The notes beneath the pieces were generated by a model, which ran no database searches, was not told the origin of the DNA, and was given only the letters and a program-made list of their open reading frames with translations. The position numbers and the translations under genes were made by a program. Positions 1-20,289 of a DNA stretch of 22,958 nt are shown piece after piece. The stretch is from a virus. Where the stretch lies: positions 1-22,958 of the IMG/VR virus record IMGVR_UViG_3300027849_000062. One strand, 5' to 3'. Position 1 is the stretch's first letter. Every line of letters begins with the position of its first letter.

Positions 1-450
1 CCCTGGATTGTTTCCCTGAACTCTGGGTTAGTTAACCCATACGCAACAAACTCTTTAACGTTAGACAGTGGCCCTCTACGCATATTAGTAGTAGCTTTGT
101 TACCTAGAAGTTTGCGAGTCTTAATAAGTAAAGCTTGCAGCTCTTTAACCGCTTGATGTGCTGCAGGGTTACGTGGTGACTTACCCGATTTAACTTCCCC
201 GCTTACTTCATTTATTAGCTTTGAGGTCATACCGTGCAGCACTTCATGGGCTACAGTTTCAGGGGTCATACCATTTACTACAAAGTCTGTAGACTTTAAA
301 TAGATAGTATTAGTTTCTGCAACGTACCCACCTTTGGAACCAACTAGTGCTTCTAGTCTTGGGTCGTAAGGTGTGTCTTTATTTATAACAACAAGCTTCA
401 AGTCTTTTGAAACCAATGGTAATAGGTCATTAATTAGTGTACCCAGTACA
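1..450 (-). other. Zincin-like HExxH metallopeptidase module in the polymerase C-terminal part
   Basis: Residues 2366-2370 read HEVLH (plus positions 234-248), preceded by short beta-type segments (KLVVINKD, GGYVAETNTIYLK) as is usual before the active-site helix of zincins. A candidate third ligand is Glu2431 in KEFVAYGLTNPEF (51-53), about 61 residues further, in an E-x2-A context typical of phage and polyvalent-protein zincins. The module is cut by the window edge, so completeness cannot be judged. Seen: the motif and its order. Inferred: zinc binding and proteolysis. Confidence 0.6.
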
Positions 451-3400
451 TCAATGTTACCCACCGCAAAGTTGTCTTTTATGTGCTCAAACAGGTCTAC
501 CACATTATCAAAATTAGCAACTGTAGTACTAAACTGGGTAGCAGACTTTCTACCTAGTTTGCCCCAAGGGTTACTCTCAGTAACTGGTGTAGGGGTAACA
601 GGAATAGTAGCAATAACTGGACCCCTCTGATCATTAGCTTCACGCTTCTCACGATTAGATTTACCCAGTGGAGTTTCAAAACCAGCACCTTCAAAGCTGT
701 AGTGATTAACATGCTCGATACTGTCCTTAAATTCTTGTATTGGCTTCTCAGTCATAACCTCTACAAGCATTACTTTGTTTCTGGCTCCTGCCAATAAAGT
801 AACTATTTTCTTATTAGGTGATATGTGCCCACCCTCTACAAGTTGTGCAAGTGCTTCTTGTGACTTTTCTAATGTCTCTGCTAACTCACGGTAGACATGG
901 CGCTCATTCATTAAGTCATGCATGGCTTCGTTAAGTGCTTTAGCCACCTCAGCAACGTTCTCTACACTTGAAGGGAAACCGTCAAATACGTTAAGTACGT
1001 CATACTTGGTAAATATTTTCAGAGCTATGGTTGCATCGATAGAGTGAATAAACTGTATAGCAGCACCTGAAGCAATGTACTCTACAAAACTTACTGTGGT
1101 TGGTGCGTTGGTTAATGTAGAGCTACCATTATTGTTCAGCGGCTTAGAGAATTGTGTTACTACGTCACCCTGGCGTTTAATACCTTTCTTCTTATCACCT
1201 GGATTCCTAGTAACCATCTCAGTCTTACTGACTTGTAGTTGCTCATTAGCGTTATCAGAAAAAGATATTTGAGTTGCGGGCATAAGCGGCTGCAGTAGCT
1301 CTATGATCTTGTCTATCTCAACTTGCGGTAGATAGTCACCCTTTTGCATACTACCGCTTTCAGTGAGTTCCTGTGTCTTCTTAGCCACCATTTCTTTGTA
1401 TGCTATAATGAATGCTTCATTCATAGATTGCATTGCACCGTTGTACTCTGCTCTGTTCTCTTTGAATCCTTCAAACATACTATCTATTGCATTACCTAGT
1501 GACTCATAGTGCAAACCGCCAGCAGCATTCTTTATTGCAGCCTGTGTCTTAAAGTTAAGCGCACCTTCTTTAGTAAGTAAGAATTTAGGGTCACCGTTTA
1601 AAACCAAGTTATCCCTGCTACCTGATAAGTAGCTAATGAACTTATTAATCTTAGCTAACTCTTTATTCTTTTGAGTAGTGGTCTTGCTATCGTCGTTAAC
1701 AACTTCTTCTATTTTAGTATTGATGCTTTCAAGTAATGACTCACCGAAGTCATCAAGTATGCCTCCCAATCCAGCACCATACACATTAGTCATGAGTGGA
1801 CCTTTAGCAGTGCTTCTTACAATGCTACCCATAAAATGCTTTATTGCATTTAACCCGTTAATTATTCCAACATCGTTATTAGCTTTAGCTGTTGTCATCA
1901 TTGCGCTGATACTAGAACTCCACTCCTCTTTTAGAGTCTCATACATATCATTCTCACCACTTTCCTTGAACTCACCATTAGAGCGACGTTCATCAGAGTA
2001 GACACCTGCTTTTTCTAAAAGACCTGCCATGTCGTGGTTACCAAATTGTATTAAACCAATGGCTGGTCCATTAGTAATACCATCTAGCTCAATCCAGATA
2101 TCAGAAGTAAAAGACTTTTTGCCATTCTTCTTAGCATCCAAGAATCTTCCTAGATTAGTAAGTGCGAGTAATGTGTGGGTATTCTCCCCAGCTTTCTCTA
2201 TGGCCCTCACTATTACTTCCCTGGATGAAGCCATATCTTCAGTACTAATATCAGCATCAGAGTTAATCATATGTATAGCTTGAGCTGCCTCTACAAAAAG
2301 AGGGGTTTCATTATTCTCTTCAAGCTTAGTAACGCCATCCAGTTCACTTATATTTAGCTCTTTAGTTAAAGCTGCAAGTAGCGTAGGCATAGTCAACTTG
2401 TCTGCACCAAGACCTTTAACTTTAAAGTCTAGTCCTTGGGCAATACCATATAAGAAGTTGTCCTGCATAACTTGGTCATTAAGACTTACTTCAGTTTTCC
2501 ATTTTTTTAAGCCAACTAATCCCCTTACTATTTTAGAGGATTGGGGGTTAACCAATGTGTTTGCTATACCCACACGTAGGTTTTTCCAAGGTGCATAGGT
2601 AAAGTAGAATGGAGTAGCTAAACCCTTCTTAGTCCCTTTCAAGCTGTTTCGGTAACTTTGTAGGTTATCCCAGTCCTTCTGTATTGCTGAGTTTTTAGCA
2701 AGATGCATCTTTCGATTACCTTCTGTCATCTTAGCTAAATCTTCTTTACTAACTAGACCTAGTACCTTATCAAGTTGGGCACCATCAAATAACTGCATGA
2801 TATTGTCTGTTTGTTCTGACAAGCCCCACGGCTTCGCCTGGGCTTGCAAAAGCATCTTACTGACTGTGTCAGCTACGTTTCGTACAGTGTTCTTTAACTT
2901 GTCTGCTGTGGTTAATACAGGAGCTAGGCTAGGAGCTGTAGCAGCTTTACTTGGATTAAGTAACTCTCCTACGACCCGGTCAGTGTCTTCATTGATGTCA
3001 ATTTTACTTTGTACGGTAGGTATCATTTCCTTACCATCTTCCAAAGTAGCTACCCGCACACCTGTGAGGTATCTGTCTACTACATCTCCTTTCTCGCCTT
3101 TCTTAAGTGGCTTACCATTTTTGGTTTTCAAAGTAGATTGAACTGTCTTTTGGTGTAACTCTACGAAGCCTTTATGCTGTAAAGCACCAAGAACAAAGTT
3201 ACCCAGTGTAGTATGAAGCTCAGACTGCTTATCCGCATTGGTTGTTTCTGGGTTGTAGTCTATGCCAAGTGCACCTGCTATATCTCTCCCTATCCCACTG
3301 GCAAGCCTGATACGACTAACACCCATGTCACTGTGATTAATGTAATCGCTTGAACCTACGCTGTCCTTATCTGGTAAACCAAGTAAGCTAGCCATGTCAG

Positions 3401-6400
3401 TAGGGCTCGGGTAAATAGTACCTTTGGCTTCAAAAGCCAAGAAGCTATATGCAGCAGCAGACATAGCAGCTAATGCAGAATCAGTAAGTTTTCCATCTTT
3501 TAAGAACGCCGCATTCATACGGTTATGCACATGTATGTCTAATACATTTAGAGGCGACAGGTCATTAAGTACTTTAGAGAATGTTTCAGCAAAACCAACG
3601 AAATCTTTTATAGCCGCACTCTTACGAGGAGACATAATAAACTCTGACTGGGCGTAAGCTAAAGCAAGCTCTGGTAATACTTTAAGCCTAGCTATTACGC
3701 CTTGTACATTACCTATTACACCCTTTGGCTTACCTACTTGGAACCAACGGCCAAACTTAGTATCTGAGTAACCATCCATTATTTCTTGTGCAGCACTGAA
3801 CTTCTCTGCTGTGCCTAATAATACCTTTAGATCAGACCTAAGCTTTTTAACCTTTGCAGTAGCTTCTTTAAGCTTACTGTGAACATCTTTAGTAGCTTCT
3901 TTATCACCTTCCGCTGCTTTGAAAAGACCCTTAACACCTTCAACTTCTAAGCCAGCACGGATAATATTACGAATGGTTTCTCGCGCTTTATCCGTATAAC
4001 CTTCGGTATCATCAGCAAACGTTTCACTAACCACTGCTGCTTCAGCCTGGGCTAGTTCTTTCTTAGTGATTGTTTCTATTTCTTTATTAAGTTTCTTCTT
4101 ATCATCAAGAAGACTTCTTTTTGTTTCATCTACTTTTGCACGGACAGCTTTCTTATCTGCATCGGTCAAACTATTACTGTTTAAACCAAGAGCTATAATG
4201 GCATCCCTACGACGCTGTGATGCATTATCATTGGAGAGTTGTTCATCGATGGCAGCCACTTGATCATTGAGTGCAGTAATCCTACCAGTGACCTCTTCTA
4301 ACTTAGTAGCAGCTTCTGTTTGTTCTGGCTCTACAACAGTGTCATTAATAATAGATGGTTCCGGTTCTACATCACCTTCTACAGTTGCTTCTGCCTGCGG
4401 CTCAGCAACTACTTCCTCTACTTGTTCTTGAGGCTCCTGCGTAGCAGGTGGCTCTGTAACGACTTCAGTGACATTATTTTCTGTTGGGGTAACTTTGTTC
4501 CATTTATTAAAAGAATGTCCATCAACAGTCTCCTGTTTAGCCGTGTAACCCTTACTGGTTAAGTAGGCTTGTAACTTTCCTTCACCTACTTCATTGTATT
4601 TACTATTACCATGACCAGAGGTATCAGTAATAATAGTGGCACCTGCTGTAATGGCTCTATCAACCTCAGACAAGTCAGTATCTACTCTGTTGCTGCGATT
4701 ACCCTCTGCACTAATAAATACGGTGTCAGTAGCTTCATAGGAGCCAGTGTTAGCATTGTCGCCCCAGTCTTTAGCATACTGGTTTGTAGAAGACTTCTCT
4801 GAACCAACACCTATAAACTTATTAGCTTGATCAGACTTAACTTGGTCTTTAGGAGTATGTTTACCTGTTTTAGTTAGTTCGACTTTAGTAGGGGTTACTT
4901 CTTCTGTAACTACAGGCTCACGCTTACCGTTTGTTATAGCCACATCTACTTCAGCTAACGTAGCAGCAAGTACTGCAGCTTCTAATTGAATAGACTGAAC
5001 CACTGGGCCAGCAGAAGTATTAACTACCTCGAAGCCTGGGCCAGCTAGTGTCTTGTAATTATCACGAATATATTGGGCAGCATCTAGCTCAGCTTGTGTT
5101 GCTGGTTCAGGTGCAGGATTACCTCTACTGGATTGAGCTACTGTTCTTCTAGCATAGGGAGCGTATGCAGTCTTAAAGACTTCTGCTTTGTCTATGTGTC
5201 TTTGAGCAAAAGACTGGAACTTCTCACGGATTGCTTTTACTTTTTCAGTATTACCTTCATTTATGGCAGAGAATACCATCTGCCTATAGTTGTTACTCCC
5301 AAATACATTAGGGATTTCAGGATTTGCTGTACGCTTACCGGCAATAACCTCACCGTGTACTTGCTCCTTTGTTTTAAGCTTACCTTCTTCCTTGAAAGCG
5401 TTGGACTCTTCTTGTGCTTTAACCACTTCAGCCGATGCTTCAAGCTGTGTGCGTTCTTGCGATGTCCATTTATCTGACGATAATAATGCAGTCATCTGTT
5501 CCGTATTTAACGCACCTGGATTGTACTCATTAGTATCAAAGATACGCTGAGCATCAATCTCAAACTTTGCGTCCCTGTCTGTTGAGGCCGTTATACTATT
5601 AACGGTGTCCATTGATTTAATCAAACCTGCTTCTTTGGCTTGCATTCTTACAAGATCATTATTTTCTATAACGTCTTGAAGTACCCCTATCTTTTCATTA
5701 ATTTCTTTAATCTTTTTAGGGTCAGTAGTCCTATCTCTTTCTGCGTATAACTTATCCTCTTGCTCAAAAGCGGCCGCGATAGTACTTGTGTATGCTTTTA
5801 AAAGTCCACTAGATTTATCTGCATCTAAAGTATTTTTATTATTCGCAACATCATATAGTTTAGTAATGGTATCTAATGCAGATCTAACACTACCTTTATC
5901 GGTAGTAATATCCTCATTAAGAGCTGCCTCTACATATGAGTTGTAATCCCCTGATTCAACGACAGAGTCTAAGGCAGCTTCTTTCTTTTTATTTGCGTTA
6001 GCCTTGGCTATTACTTTATTAGTGGTGGCTTGTATAGCACCCTTAGTACCGTCTTTTACTACACCTAGTGCTTGACTAGGAATTGTAGTTACGCCTGCAG
6101 CACCTAAACCTATGGCAGCACCTGTGAATACTTCTTTACCATCCTCCTTAAGGTTGAAGTCTTTACCAAAGTTGTCCCCTTCAATGGCTGTTTGGATACC
6201 TTCTGTTACACTTTCTTGAGCGATAGCTCCTGTAGTCTTTGCTACACGGGTTGCAGTGGATTTTAATAATGATTTCTTGACTGCCTCTTTAGAAGGTACT
6301 TTAGCTTTGCCAGCCCTACTTAAAGCTTTTAATCCAGAGACTGAAGCTAATGTAGCGTTACTTATATACTCTAAGCCTCCGGCTAATAATGCTTCTTGGC

Positions 6401-7343
6401 CTAACTCACGTTGCTTAGCTTTACTTACTAACCTCTCTGTTTCCTCGTCACTGTTTCTAAGATTCTGTGACCTTACATCACTAGAGTAAGCTAAGGTATT
6501 AGCTATAGCGGTATAAGGGTTTACAGATAATACAGTACTTAGTGCACTCTCAGCAGCGTACTCTACGGTTGCACCTACGTTATCTAATAAGGCACCTACA
6601 CCCTCAGACAGCTTAGCGCCCACTTTTATAGTGTCAAACACTCCATCAGCGTTAGATATTGCATCATCCATGCTGTCCCAAGCACCGGCTAAATCTCGAT
6701 TAAGCTGCTCTCTTTTAAGTGTGTTAAACCCTTTAGTGAGCCAAGTATCTTCGGTGTAGTAGTTCTTATCTTTCTGCGCTTTTTGTTGTGCTGTTTTATA
6801 CTTATCATACACTTCGCGGGCACCAACTAATTCAGCGGTGTCTGTAAAACCCCCATACTGATGATCTGACTTTTTACCTATATCGATAGGCTTATCTAGT
6901 TCAGCAGACTCTTCTGGAGTTAAGGCTATACCCTGCTTCTCTTTGTATAGGGCATCTCTGGCAGCATCGCTTAATTTACTTAAGTAACCAACTGCTTCTT
7001 CATTATCACCAGCAGATGTAAAGTTACCTGCTATACGCGCTGCATCTAGTGCTATAGCAGTAACTGTGTTAAGTGTTGCACCAGATATTGTATCAAGGTC
7101 ATTGTCACCAACAAAAGCACCAGTACTCTGTACTGCTCTACGCATACGCTCAGCGATATTAGCGTCGACGTAACCTAATGGTTCTTCAGTAATAGAAGCT
7201 AATTTTTGAGAGTTTACTTCTGCAGCTTTACTTAGTTTGGCAAGTTTGTTTGTGGTGGCATTAGCTACTTTGGGTTGATTTCTGTTTATGGCGTTTTCTA
7301 GTATGGAGGAGGTGGTTTGAGGTACAAGATTTGGATCACTCAT
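1..7343 (-). CDS. Giant virion-encapsidated RNA polymerase, N4 gp50-like (3' end outside window)
   Basis: Single-subunit RNA polymerase of the T7/N4 type, expected to be packaged, ejected with the DNA and to transcribe early genes. The frame stays open for 2447 codons and leaves the window at the left edge; N4's enzyme is about 3500 aa. Start: ATG at 7343 with AGGA 8 nt upstream. Layout by residue: helical, alanine-rich region with hydrophobic stretches (about 245-440); helical region (450-830); unrecognised globular domain (about 840-950); acidic Pro/Glu linker (950-1018); polymerase core (about 1020-2150); HExxH module (about 2310 to the edge). Polymerase motifs: NPQ-associated Arg1590, motif A Asp1754-Gly, motif B Arg1843/Lys1847/Tyr1855-Gly, motif C His2100 to Asp2103. 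It is the last gene visible in the late operon and is preceded by a long hairpin. Family assignment is firm; roles of the flanking domains are inferred. Confidence 0.93.
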   Translation of the reverse strand, partial: MSDPNLVPQTTSSILENAINRNQPKVANATTNKLAKLSKAAEVNSQKLASITEEPLGYVDANIAERMRRAVQSTGAFVGDNDLDTISGATLNTVTAIALDAARIAGNFTSAGDNEEAVGYLSKLSDAARDALYKEKQGIALTPEESAELDKPIDIGKKSDHQYGGFTDTAELVGAREVYDKYKTAQQKAQKDKNYYTEDTWLTKGFNTLKREQLNRDLAGAWDSMDDAISNADGVFDTIKVGAKLSEGVGALLDNVGATVEYAAESALSTVLSVNPYTAIANTLAYSSDVRSQNLRNSDEETERLVSKAKQRELGQEALLAGGLEYISNATLASVSGLKALSRAGKAKVPSKEAVKKSLLKSTATRVAKTTGAIAQESVTEGIQTAIEGDNFGKDFNLKEDGKEVFTGAAIGLGAAGVTTIPSQALGVVKDGTKGAIQATTNKVIAKANANKKKEAALDSVVESGDYNSYVEAALNEDITTDKGSVRSALDTITKLYDVANNKNTLDADKSSGLLKAYTSTIAAAFEQEDKLYAERDRTTDPKKIKEINEKIGVLQDVIENNDLVRMQAKEAGLIKSMDTVNSITASTDRDAKFEIDAQRIFDTNEYNPGALNTEQMTALLSSDKWTSQERTQLEASAEVVKAQEESNAFKEEGKLKTKEQVHGEVIAGKRTANPEIPNVFGSNNYRQMVFSAINEGNTEKVKAIREKFQSFAQRHIDKAEVFKTAYAPYARRTVAQSSRGNPAPEPATQAELDAAQYIRDNYKTLAGPGFEVVNTSAGPVVQSIQLEAAVLAATLAEVDVAITNGKREPVVTEEVTPTKVELTKTGKHTPKDQVKSDQANKFIGVGSEKSSTNQYAKDWGDNANTGSYEATDTVFISAEGNRSNRVDTDLSEVDRAITAGATIITDTSGHGNSKYNEVGEGKLQAYLTSKGYTAKQETVDGHSFNKWNKVTPTENNVTEVVTEPPATQEPQEQVEEVVAEPQAEATVEGDVEPEPSIINDTVVEPEQTEAATKLEEVTGRITALNDQVAAIDEQLSNDNASQRRRDAIIALGLNSNSLTDADKKAVRAKVDETKRSLLDDKKKLNKEIETITKKELAQAEAAVVSETFADDTEGYTDKARETIRNIIRAGLEVEGVKGLFKAAEGDKEATKDVHSKLKEATAKVKKLRSDLKVLLGTAEKFSAAQEIMDGYSDTKFGRWFQVGKPKGVIGNVQGVIARLKVLPELALAYAQSEFIMSPRKSAAIKDFVGFAETFSKVLNDLSPLNVLDIHVHNRMNAAFLKDGKLTDSALAAMSAAAYSFLAFEAKGTIYPSPTDMASLLGLPDKDSVGSSDYINHSDMGVSRIRLASGIGRDIAGALGIDYNPETTNADKQSELHTTLGNFVLGALQHKGFVELHQKTVQSTLKTKNGKPLKKGEKGDVVDRYLTGVRVATLEDGKEMIPTVQSKIDINEDTDRVVGELLNPSKAATAPSLAPVLTTADKLKNTVRNVADTVSKMLLQAQAKPWGLSEQTDNIMQLFDGAQLDKVLGLVSKEDLAKMTEGNRKMHLAKNSAIQKDWDNLQSYRNSLKGTKKGLATPFYFTYAPWKNLRVGIANTLVNPQSSKIVRGLVGLKKWKTEVSLNDQVMQDNFLYGIAQGLDFKVKGLGADKLTMPTLLAALTKELNISELDGVTKLEENNETPLFVEAAQAIHMINSDADISTEDMASSREVIVRAIEKAGENTHTLLALTNLGRFLDAKKNGKKSFTSDIWIELDGITNGPAIGLIQFGNHDMAGLLEKAGVYSDERRSNGEFKESGENDMYETLKEEWSSSISAMMTTAKANNDVGIINGLNAIKHFMGSIVRSTAKGPLMTNVYGAGLGGILDDFGESLLESINTKIEEVVNDDSKTTTQKNKELAKINKFISYLSGSRDNLVLNGDPKFLLTKEGALNFKTQAAIKNAAGGLHYESLGNAIDSMFEGFKENRAEYNGAMQSMNEAFIIAYKEMVAKKTQELTESGSMQKGDYLPQVEIDKIIELLQPLMPATQISFSDNANEQLQVSKTEMVTRNPGDKKKGIKRQGDVVTQFSKPLNNNGSSTLTNAPTTVSFVEYIASGAAIQFIHSIDATIALKIFTKYDVLNVFDGFPSSVENVAEVAKALNEAMHDLMNERHVYRELAETLEKSQEALAQLVEGGHISPNKKIVTLLAGARNKVMLVEVMTEKPIQEFKDSIEHVNHYSFEGAGFETPLGKSNREKREANDQRGPVIATIPVTPTPVTESNPWGKLGRKSATQFSTTVANFDNVVDLFEHIKDNFAVGNIDVLGTLINDLLPLVSKDLKLVVINKDTPYDPRLEALVGSKGGYVAETNTIYLKSTDFVVNGMTPETVAHEVLHGMTSKLINEVSGEVKSGKSPRNPAAHQAVKELQALLIKTRKLLGNKATTNMRRGPLSNVKEFVAYGLTNPEFRETIQ
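900..4290 (-). other. RNA polymerase catalytic core within the giant protein
   Basis: This is the region corresponding to the N4 mini-vRNAP (roughly 1100 residues). Motif A reads LDGITNGPAIG with catalytic Asp at 2082-2084. Motif B reads RSTAKGPLMTNVYG at 1776-1817, matching the T7 pattern R-x3-K-x3-MT-x2-YG residue for residue in spacing. Motif C reads IHSIDAT with the second catalytic Asp at 1035-1037. About 164 residues before motif A there is WKNLRV followed by NPQSSKIVR, aligning with T7 DWRGRV...FNPQ. Distances between motifs (164, 93 and 256 residues from Arg1590 to Asp1754, Lys1847 and Asp2103) fit a single-subunit polymerase. Confidence 0.88.
4490..4830 (-). other. Unrecognised globular alpha/beta domain plus acidic linker boundary in the polymerase N-terminal half
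   Basis: Residues about 840-950 differ from their helical, low-complexity surroundings: they contain FIGVGSEKSSTNQYAKDWG, then TVFISAEGNRSNR, AITAGATIITD and a YNEVGEGKLQAYLTSKGY helix. Alternating hydrophobic strands with Gly/Ser-rich turns suggest a small Rossmann-like fold, loosely reminiscent of SLOG/DprA-type nucleotide-binding domains, but I cannot name the family. It is flanked downstream by a Pro/Glu/Val-rich linker (residues 950-1018) that separates it from the polymerase core. Confidence 0.45.
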
Positions 7344-19050: not shown

Positions 19051-20289
19051 TTAGTTTGCGCTAAATGCGAAGTTGTAATAGATGTCTGATGTAACCACGA
19101 TAGAAGTATCTATAGTGTTTCTTGCGTAGCATCTAATAATTCCATCATAGAAGGCTTCCGTGGCCTGCGCGGGCGTGACTCTAATAACGAGAGTCTTATT
19201 ATTAAACCCCCATTGTGTGTTGCTCACGCTATTCATCTGTACGTCAGCGTTAGGATAACTACTACCTGATGACAACGTCTCCTTAGATTGCTCTATGAAC
19301 GCAAACTTATACTCACACACCTCGGTCATCCCTGCCCCGTATCCTAATTGCCAATCTATAGAAGACTGCCAAGTGAGGTAATAAGTGTTGCTGCCTTGCA
19401 TAGTGTCGCCATTAGCCTGCTTATTTGGCGGTGGCACACTCCAGTAGAATGATGTGACGGTGCCTCTGAAGTGCGTGAGCCTCAACCACACACTTGGGTT
19501 GTTGGTAATGCTGTCATTTTCGGGGGATATCGTAGGGACAAACTCATCCCTACGGTAACTGTCGAGATTATTACCGCCGCCAAAGAAGGCTTTAACATCA
19601 TTGAGCGTAATGTTCCCAGTCTCATGACCAAACTCTAGGATTGTGCCATCAGCGGGGTCGCCCATAGTGCTTATAGCCCAATATGACGTTACCCCTGTTA
19701 CGTTCACAGTTGTATTGACCGACGAACCGTAACTTGATGATGCAGCCATTCGAGTCCACACTCTGTCGTCATTGTAGACAAGTAGAGTCCCTGTTGTGTA
19801 CGTGTCTCCGTTCTTGCTTATCTGAGCCGTACCTGAAGCGGACACCGTTGCGTATGTCCCGTTAGACAACCCTGATATGACAAAACTCCGTGAGTAGTAA
19901 ACATTGTTTGGACTAGCGCCCACTACATTAGAACCTAACGTGAAGGCATTAGGTGTATTATCTATACCGTCTGATACATACGCCGTGAATGTTGCTGAGT
20001 CATACGAAGTGGCAGATATCGACAAGACATCTGACTGCTCGGTAGGTGGGTTTTTAACTGTATGATAAACATACCCTCCACCTAGCGTCAGCGTTGCACT
20101 TGCCGTTCCTGTCCACGCTGTAGAACTCCATCCCGAAACATAGACATTCGACGGTTGATTGCCTCCCGAATGAGAGACCCATCGAAAGGCCAACCTGTCG
20201 TTTGAGCTTAATATCTGAGAACCACCACCGCTTAGGAAGTTAGTTTCAGCATCACTATACGTGGTGACATCATAAAGAAAATCAGCCAT
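19051..20289 (-). CDS. Beta-rich tail appendage / receptor-binding candidate with Ig-like domain
   Basis: A 412-aa protein rich in Ser, Thr, Tyr and Trp. Residues about 131-209 follow an Ig/fibronectin-like pattern common in phage tail proteins (YYSRSFVISGLSNGTYATVS; VYNDDRVWTRMAASSSYG; ending SYWAISTM). Residues 226-276 (NITLNDVKAFFGGGNNLDSY, then RRDEFVP and LRLTHFRG) resemble the 'SLSDIRxEFGGxNxxSLxxYYRGGxYVP...ISLSDF' signature of many marine phage tail proteins, here in diverged form. The last 130 residues are another beta domain. ATG 20289 has GGAGG 8 nt upstream and overlaps the end of the fibre gene by 8 bp, so the two are coupled. Probable structural partner or tip of the fibre; exact role unknown. 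Confidence 0.72.
   Translation of the reverse strand: MADFLYDVTTYSDAETNFLSGGGSQILSSNDRLAFRWVSHSGGNQPSNVYVSGWSSTAWTGTASATLTLGGGYVYHTVKNPPTEQSDVLSISATSYDSATFTAYVSDGIDNTPNAFTLGSNVVGASPNNVYYSRSFVISGLSNGTYATVSASGTAQISKNGDTYTTGTLLVYNDDRVWTRMAASSSYGSSVNTTVNVTGVTSYWAISTMGDPADGTILEFGHETGNITLNDVKAFFGGGNNLDSYRRDEFVPTISPENDSITNNPSVWLRLTHFRGTVTSFYWSVPPPNKQANGDTMQGSNTYYLTWQSSIDWQLGYGAGMTEVCEYKFAFIEQSKETLSSGSSYPNADVQMNSVSNTQWGFNNKTLVIRVTPAQATEAFYDGIIRCYARNTIDTSIVVTSDIYYNFAFSAN

What the first reader, a model, noticed from the sequence alone, without database searches (positions are those of the whole stretch)
1..450. HExxH zincin-like module downstream of the virion polymerase core
HEVLH at residues 2366-2370 with preceding beta strands and a downstream Glu in KEFVAYG looks like a metallopeptidase that would be injected along with the polymerase. 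A peptidase delivered at entry could cleave the polyprotein-sized virion enzyme itself, a capsid protein or a host defence protein. N4 vRNAP is not generally described as a protease.
Basis: partly seen in the sequence, partly recalled or inferred. Interest (0 to 1): 0.65.

Follow-up and report, generated by a model that had tools for sequence, protein, structure and literature searches.

The report
Known protease domain in phage polymerase
The giant RNA polymerase that this N4-like phage carries in its particle has a built-in zinc-protease-like domain with a fully intact active site; this is real, but the same domain was described in phage N4 in 2017 and its structure was deposited in 2025, so the sequence is a new member of a known kind.

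Summary
HEVLH is at residues 2366-2370 (window 248-234, minus strand) of a 2447-residue virion RNA polymerase (vRNAP) cut off by the contig end, and the distal Glu is E2431. Across 23 diverse vRNAPs, coliphage N4 included, the only invariant columns of the region are H, E, H and that Glu. Predicted secondary structure fits a gluzincin. The complete domain of the closest relative (L002) matches the N4 vRNAP cryo-EM structure best (probability 0.98-0.99), and enzymes such as leukotriene A4 hydrolase and lethal factor weakly.

Iyer et al. 2017 described this metallopeptidase in N4 vRNAP and proposed self-processing or host targets. A 2021 review repeats it, and a 2025 N4 cryo-EM preprint places the HExxH in subdomain C1.

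Catalysis and substrate are untested. Published data argue against unprompted self-cleavage. Related domains occur in a DarB-like antirestriction protein and podophage internal virion proteins.

New here: relative to L002, identity falls from about 98% to about 50% (DNA) at the RNAP-zincin linker. This suggests a recent exchange of the zincin module, or an assembly chimera.

The parts
3..7343 (-). virion RNA polymerase (N4 gp50-like), 2447 residues, 3' end cut off by the contig end
   Evidence: phrog_2206 virion RNA polymerase E 6.5e-154; 80% identical over 2142 aligned positions to the vRNAP of L002; gene order as in Schitoviridae
1035..1046 (-). HSID at residues 2100-2103 near the end of the polymerase core; by position probably the T7-RNAP motif C (assigned from memory, not tested)
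   Evidence: sequence
555..623 (-). Pro/Thr-rich linker (about residues 2241-2263) between polymerase core and zincin domain; site of the identity break against L002
   Evidence: AlphaFold2 pLDDT < 50 over residues 2242-2264; DNA comparison; N4 linker 2102-2123 is disordered (PMC12633501)
3..548 (-). zincin-like metallopeptidase domain (N4 subdomain C1 equivalent), residues about 2266-2447, C-terminal end missing
   Evidence: profile of 23 vRNAPs incl. this one matches N4 vRNAP C1 in PDB 9pnr, 11fw and others (N4 is itself in the profile); AlphaFold2 model mean pLDDT 80.7
234..248 (-). HEVLH active-site motif, residues 2366-2370 (two Zn ligands and catalytic Glu)
   Evidence: invariant H, E, H; lies in predicted helix 2361-2386
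51..53 (-). E2431, predicted third Zn ligand, in KEFVAYGLTN
   Evidence: invariant; in predicted helix 2429-2436
624..1250 (-). tract of about 98.5% DNA identity to L002 (residues 2032-2240) next to the 50%-identical zincin region: likely recombination footprint

Best explanation
The C-terminal part of this virion RNA polymerase contains the zincin-like metallopeptidase (MPTase) domain already known from N4-like vRNAPs and other phage 'polyvalent' proteins. Inferred: two His of HExxH and E2431 bind one Zn2+, and E2367 activates water. Known for N4 and inferred for this phage: the polymerase is packed uncleaved and ejected into the host. Inferred: the peptidase acts after or during ejection, when the beads-on-a-string chain refolds. 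As the more likely class of substrate I choose the phage's own injected proteins (vRNAP itself, for example its linkers, or the ejectosome partners gp51/gp52) over a host defence protein. Confidence: zincin domain with intact active site 0.95; active peptidase 0.7; own-protein substrate about 0.45, host protein about 0.3. The overall confidence given is for an active peptidase of this family.
For: Only H, E, H, E are invariant in 23 vRNAPs, the others being 15-48% identical to the window domain. Predicted order of strands, HExxH helix and Glu helix, pLDDT 91-96 around the motif, matches the MPTase description in PMC5512222. The L002 domain model's best PDB matches are N4 vRNAP 9pnt/9pnr, prob 0.98-0.99, then gluzincins weakly. 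Related domains occur in other proteins: an internal virion protein (9sfn) with E 1.7e-16, whose aligned sequence carries HEAVH and ELVAWGLT; phiM1 ejection protein gp48 (8vb2) with E 4.4e-5; a DarB-like antirestriction protein. C1 evolves at the pace of the polymerase core (mean identity difference 1.3 points in 145 pairs), which fits a conserved internal role better than a host arms race.
Against: No activity or bound Zn has been shown in any vRNAP that I could find. N4 vRNAP is packaged unprocessed (PMC5512222), and purified full-length N4 vRNAP shows 'no evidence of degradation' (PMC12633501), so self-cleavage, if it happens, needs a trigger. The two structure models gave no PDB match at E <= 0.001.
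Confidence: 0.7

Rival explanations
1. The zincin is an injected effector that cuts a host protein, for example a defence or envelope protein.
For: The vRNAP is ejected into the cell; MPTase domains in polyvalent proteins are proposed as effectors (PMC5512222); a related domain lies in a DarB-like antirestriction protein; the module appears swapped between window and L002.
Against: C1 is conserved in all vRNAPs examined, from phages of many hosts, and does not evolve faster than the polymerase core. No host substrate is known.
Confidence: 0.3
2. The HExxH fold is kept mainly for structure: C1 clasps the polymerase, helps autoinhibition and packaging, and Zn, if bound, only stabilises it.
For: The N4 C-terminal domain represses transcription, and a C1-RNAP salt bridge (R2279-D2012) clasps the closed form (PMC12633501); the C-terminal region is required for encapsidation (PMC5512222).
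Against: The general-base Glu of HExxH is invariant; a purely structural Zn site would not need it.
Confidence: 0.2
3. Chance HExxH in a helical region, not a zincin.
For: Short motif; no Pfam or NCBIfam hit for the window domain.
Against: Invariance of exactly the four expected residues; profile match to virion proteins outside the vRNAPs; 0.025 expected by chance.
Confidence: 0.02

Closest known systems
Coliphage N4 virion RNA polymerase gp50, subdomain C1 (PDB 9pnr, 9pnt, 11gp, 11fw)
   Same: Same position after the T7-like core, HELVH at 2228-2232 and distal Glu in NEFMAWGL; profile hit over the whole domain
   Different: Domain only 22% identical; the window lacks the end of the domain and all of C2; insert between HExxH and Glu is shorter in the window
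Zincin-like MPTase domains of polyvalent proteins (Iyer et al. 2017, PMC5512222)
   Same: HExxH helix, downstream Glu helix, three preceding strands, in a giant injected protein
   Different: This phage was not described in the passages read; none of the 12 published clades was assigned here
Internal virion or ejection proteins: PDB 9sfn chain G, phiM1 gp48 (8vb2)
   Same: Profile homology; 9sfn_G aligns with HEAVH and KELVAWGLT
   Different: 1337 and 1263 residues, not polymerases by their names; the 8vb2 active-site residues were not inspected
DarB-like antirestriction polyvalent protein (L060)
   Same: HELVH and ELLAYGLTDP, same motif spacing
   Different: Carries endolysin and methyltransferase-type modules, no vRNAP match

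Membership tests
N4-like virion RNA polymerase (Schitoviridae) | sequence family match | tested here: met
   phrog_2206 E 6.5e-154 over residues 63-2445
N4-like virion RNA polymerase (Schitoviridae) | gene neighbourhood of gp51, gp52, gp53-like genes, major head protein and portal | tested here: met
   same order next to the vRNAP gene as in N4
N4-like virion RNA polymerase (Schitoviridae) | complete ~3,000-3,700 aa protein with C2 region | not testable with these tools
   contig ends at residue 2447; closest relative L002 is 3675 aa; window end not found in viral contigs
zincin-like MPTase of polyvalent proteins (gluzincin) | HExxH plus downstream Glu, conserved | tested here: met
   invariant in 23-25 vRNAPs and in a second set of 26
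zincin-like MPTase of polyvalent proteins (gluzincin) | three strands, HExxH helix, Glu helix | tested here: met
   AlphaFold2 secondary structure of window domain and of L002 domain
zincin-like MPTase of polyvalent proteins (gluzincin) | fold match to solved zincins | tested here: inconclusive
   L002 model: N4 vRNAP prob 0.98-0.99 (E 0.035-0.041), LTA4 hydrolase and lethal factor at E 0.18-0.8; window model: no meaningful match
zincin-like MPTase of polyvalent proteins (gluzincin) | Zn binding and peptidase activity | not testable with these tools
   needs biochemistry; not reported for N4 in the passages read
Pfam or NCBIfam peptidase families | curated profile match | tested here: not met
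   window domain has no hit; other members only weak mixed hits

The most novel reading that the evidence does not exclude
The zincin is a switchable self-processing enzyme. After ejection it cuts the flexible linker in front of it (or the NTD-RNAP linker), freeing the polymerase from the autoinhibiting C-terminal domain. The zincin plus C-terminal part is an exchangeable cassette that recombines at that linker, as between window and L002.
Probability: 0.15. Interest if true: 0.65.

Novelty: new member of a known kind. Interest (0 to 1): 0.22.

Why it matters
The conservation of all four catalytic residues, and of nothing else, in every vRNAP aligned here predicts that a proteolytic step is part of infection by the family. 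I found no report of an assay. N4 is a laboratory phage with a solved structure, so one active-site mutant would settle it. For the window itself, the finding is ordinary: a further member of a described domain family.

Tried and rejected
Pfam and NCBIfam on the window domain: nothing. phmmer of the window vRNAP against PDB: nothing; only the alignment profile reached N4 vRNAP. Foldseek with the truncated window model: no useful match. Extension of the contig to the left by exact DNA search in viral contigs: no match. Bacterial genome records: six relatives, of which L064 (1578 aa) shows the domain with neither of two rough polymerase motif patterns. I considered reading C1 as a fast-evolving host-directed effector from the window/L002 divergence and rejected it as a general rule, because 145 other pairs show C1 and core at the same identity; the divergence is specific to this pair. 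I wondered whether conserved G2264 marks a cleavage site, but the gappy linker alignment may force that column, so no weight is put on it. An assembly chimera at the junction cannot be excluded without reads.

Full report
Observation. The window is a 22,958-base virus contig. Its left part, 3-7343 on the minus strand, encodes 2447 residues of a protein that runs off the contig end. PHROGs names it virion RNA polymerase (phrog_2206, E 6.5e-154), and the upstream genes (gp51, gp52 and gp53-like genes, virion proteins, major head protein, portal, tail fibre) fit the N4 late region. The protein has one HExxH, HEVLH at residues 2366-2370 (window 248-234). A shuffled protein of this composition would have 0.025.

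Conservation. I collected vRNAPs of 24 other phages, mostly from different Schitoviridae genera, including N4, LUZ7, Littlefix, phCDa, YH30, several Vibrio, Pectobacterium, Klebsiella, Salmonella, Achromobacter, Rhizobium and Stenotrophomonas phages. Each has an HExxH at the equivalent place. In a 23-sequence alignment, with the others 15-48% identical to the window domain, the invariant columns are H2366, E2367, H2370 and E2431 and no others; the 25-sequence alignment gives the same. A second set, mostly from viral contigs, has 24 relatives plus the window and L002; it again keeps all four, with a few more columns because its members are closer. Some of its contigs are the same phages as in the first set, and L053 and L060 in it are not standard vRNAPs.

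Fold. AlphaFold2 on the window's 207 residues (mean pLDDT 80.7) puts HExxH in a long helix (2361-2386) after strands 2316-2320, 2339-2341 and 2346-2350, and E2431 in a following helix (2429-2436); pLDDT near the motif is 91-96. The same domain of the closest complete relative, L002, gives the same order. In Foldseek against PDB its best matches are the N4 vRNAP cryo-EM models 9pnt and 9pnr (probability 0.99 and 0.98, E 0.035-0.041), followed by leukotriene A4 hydrolase and anthrax lethal factor at insignificant E-values. The truncated window model matched nothing convincingly. By sequence profile the domain matches N4 vRNAP over its whole length (E 9e-65 to 4e-63; N4 is one of the profile's own sequences) and, independently, two podophage virion proteins: 9sfn chain G (E 1.7e-16; aligned stretch contains HEAVH and KELVAWGLT) and phiM1 ejection protein gp48, 8vb2 (E 4.4e-5).

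What was known. Iyer et al. [quoted passage not shown] they note that N4 vRNAP is packaged unprocessed. A 2021 review (PMC8472413) draws the domain in N4 and in phage CB1. The 2025 preprint on N4 vRNAP (PMC12633501) places the HExxH in C1 (2124-2375), finds that the C-terminal domain inhibits transcription, that the 2102-2123 linker is disordered, and sees no degradation of the purified protein. Earlier work assigns encapsidation to the C-terminal region (PMC4496689 cites unpublished data).

Mechanism. Shown here: conserved four-residue site, predicted secondary structure, homology to N4 C1 and to other injected or virion proteins. Inferred: Zn binding, catalysis, timing, substrate. The invariant general-base Glu argues for catalysis rather than a structural metal site. 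Among 145 vRNAP pairs with at least 45% core identity, C1 is on average only 1.3 points less conserved than the polymerase core and C2 is 0.5 points more conserved. That favours a constant partner, such as the phage's own ejected proteins, over a rapidly changing host target, though only weakly; the pairs are not independent. The published stability of purified vRNAP means self-cleavage would need a trigger, such as refolding after ejection or a host factor.

A mosaic junction. Against L002 the polymerase core is about 84-88% identical in DNA with dS about 0.5-0.65. From residue about 2032 to 2240 it is about 98.5% identical, with dS about 0.05 over residues 2101-2200, and from about residue 2265 to the contig end it is about 50% identical. 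The core-minus-C1 difference is 49 points of protein identity, against at most 12 in the 145 other pairs. This looks like a recent recombination that joined different zincin modules to one polymerase at the disordered linker. A chimeric assembly at a shared near-identical tract gives the same picture and was not excluded. Since the window contig ends inside C1, whether C2 was exchanged too is unknown.

Verdict. A real, intact, conserved zincin-like domain, correctly spotted from raw sequence, in a known place in a known protein family. Interest is low for novelty, moderate for the still unassayed activity.

Noticed in passing
window 500-1300 against L002: About 98.5% DNA-identical tract (window 624-1250) between an 85%-identical core and a 50%-identical zincin region: recombination at the RNAP-zincin linker or an assembly chimera.
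   Followed up: partly
window about 5550-7343 (vRNAP residues 1-600): The N-terminal region also diverges from L002: the first 150 residues have no aligned counterpart, then 34-70% identity rises to about 90% after residue 600.
   Followed up: no
L007 (Vibrio phage PG11) vRNAP residues 2424-2428: A second HExxH (HEMTH) 237 residues after the first; Iyer et al. mention vRNAPs with more than one MPTase domain.
   Followed up: no
L053 6989-14698: A 2569-residue ORF matches vRNAP only around the zincin (residues 842-1204); possibly an ejection protein without polymerase.
   Followed up: partly
L064 8192-12925: A 1578-residue ORF in a Pseudomonas putida assembly carries HELVH and ELIAYGLTN; neither of two rough polymerase motif patterns was found.
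   Followed up: partly
window 19051-20289: A 412-residue minus-strand ORF between the portal side and the tail fibre gene has no PHROGs match.
   Followed up: no
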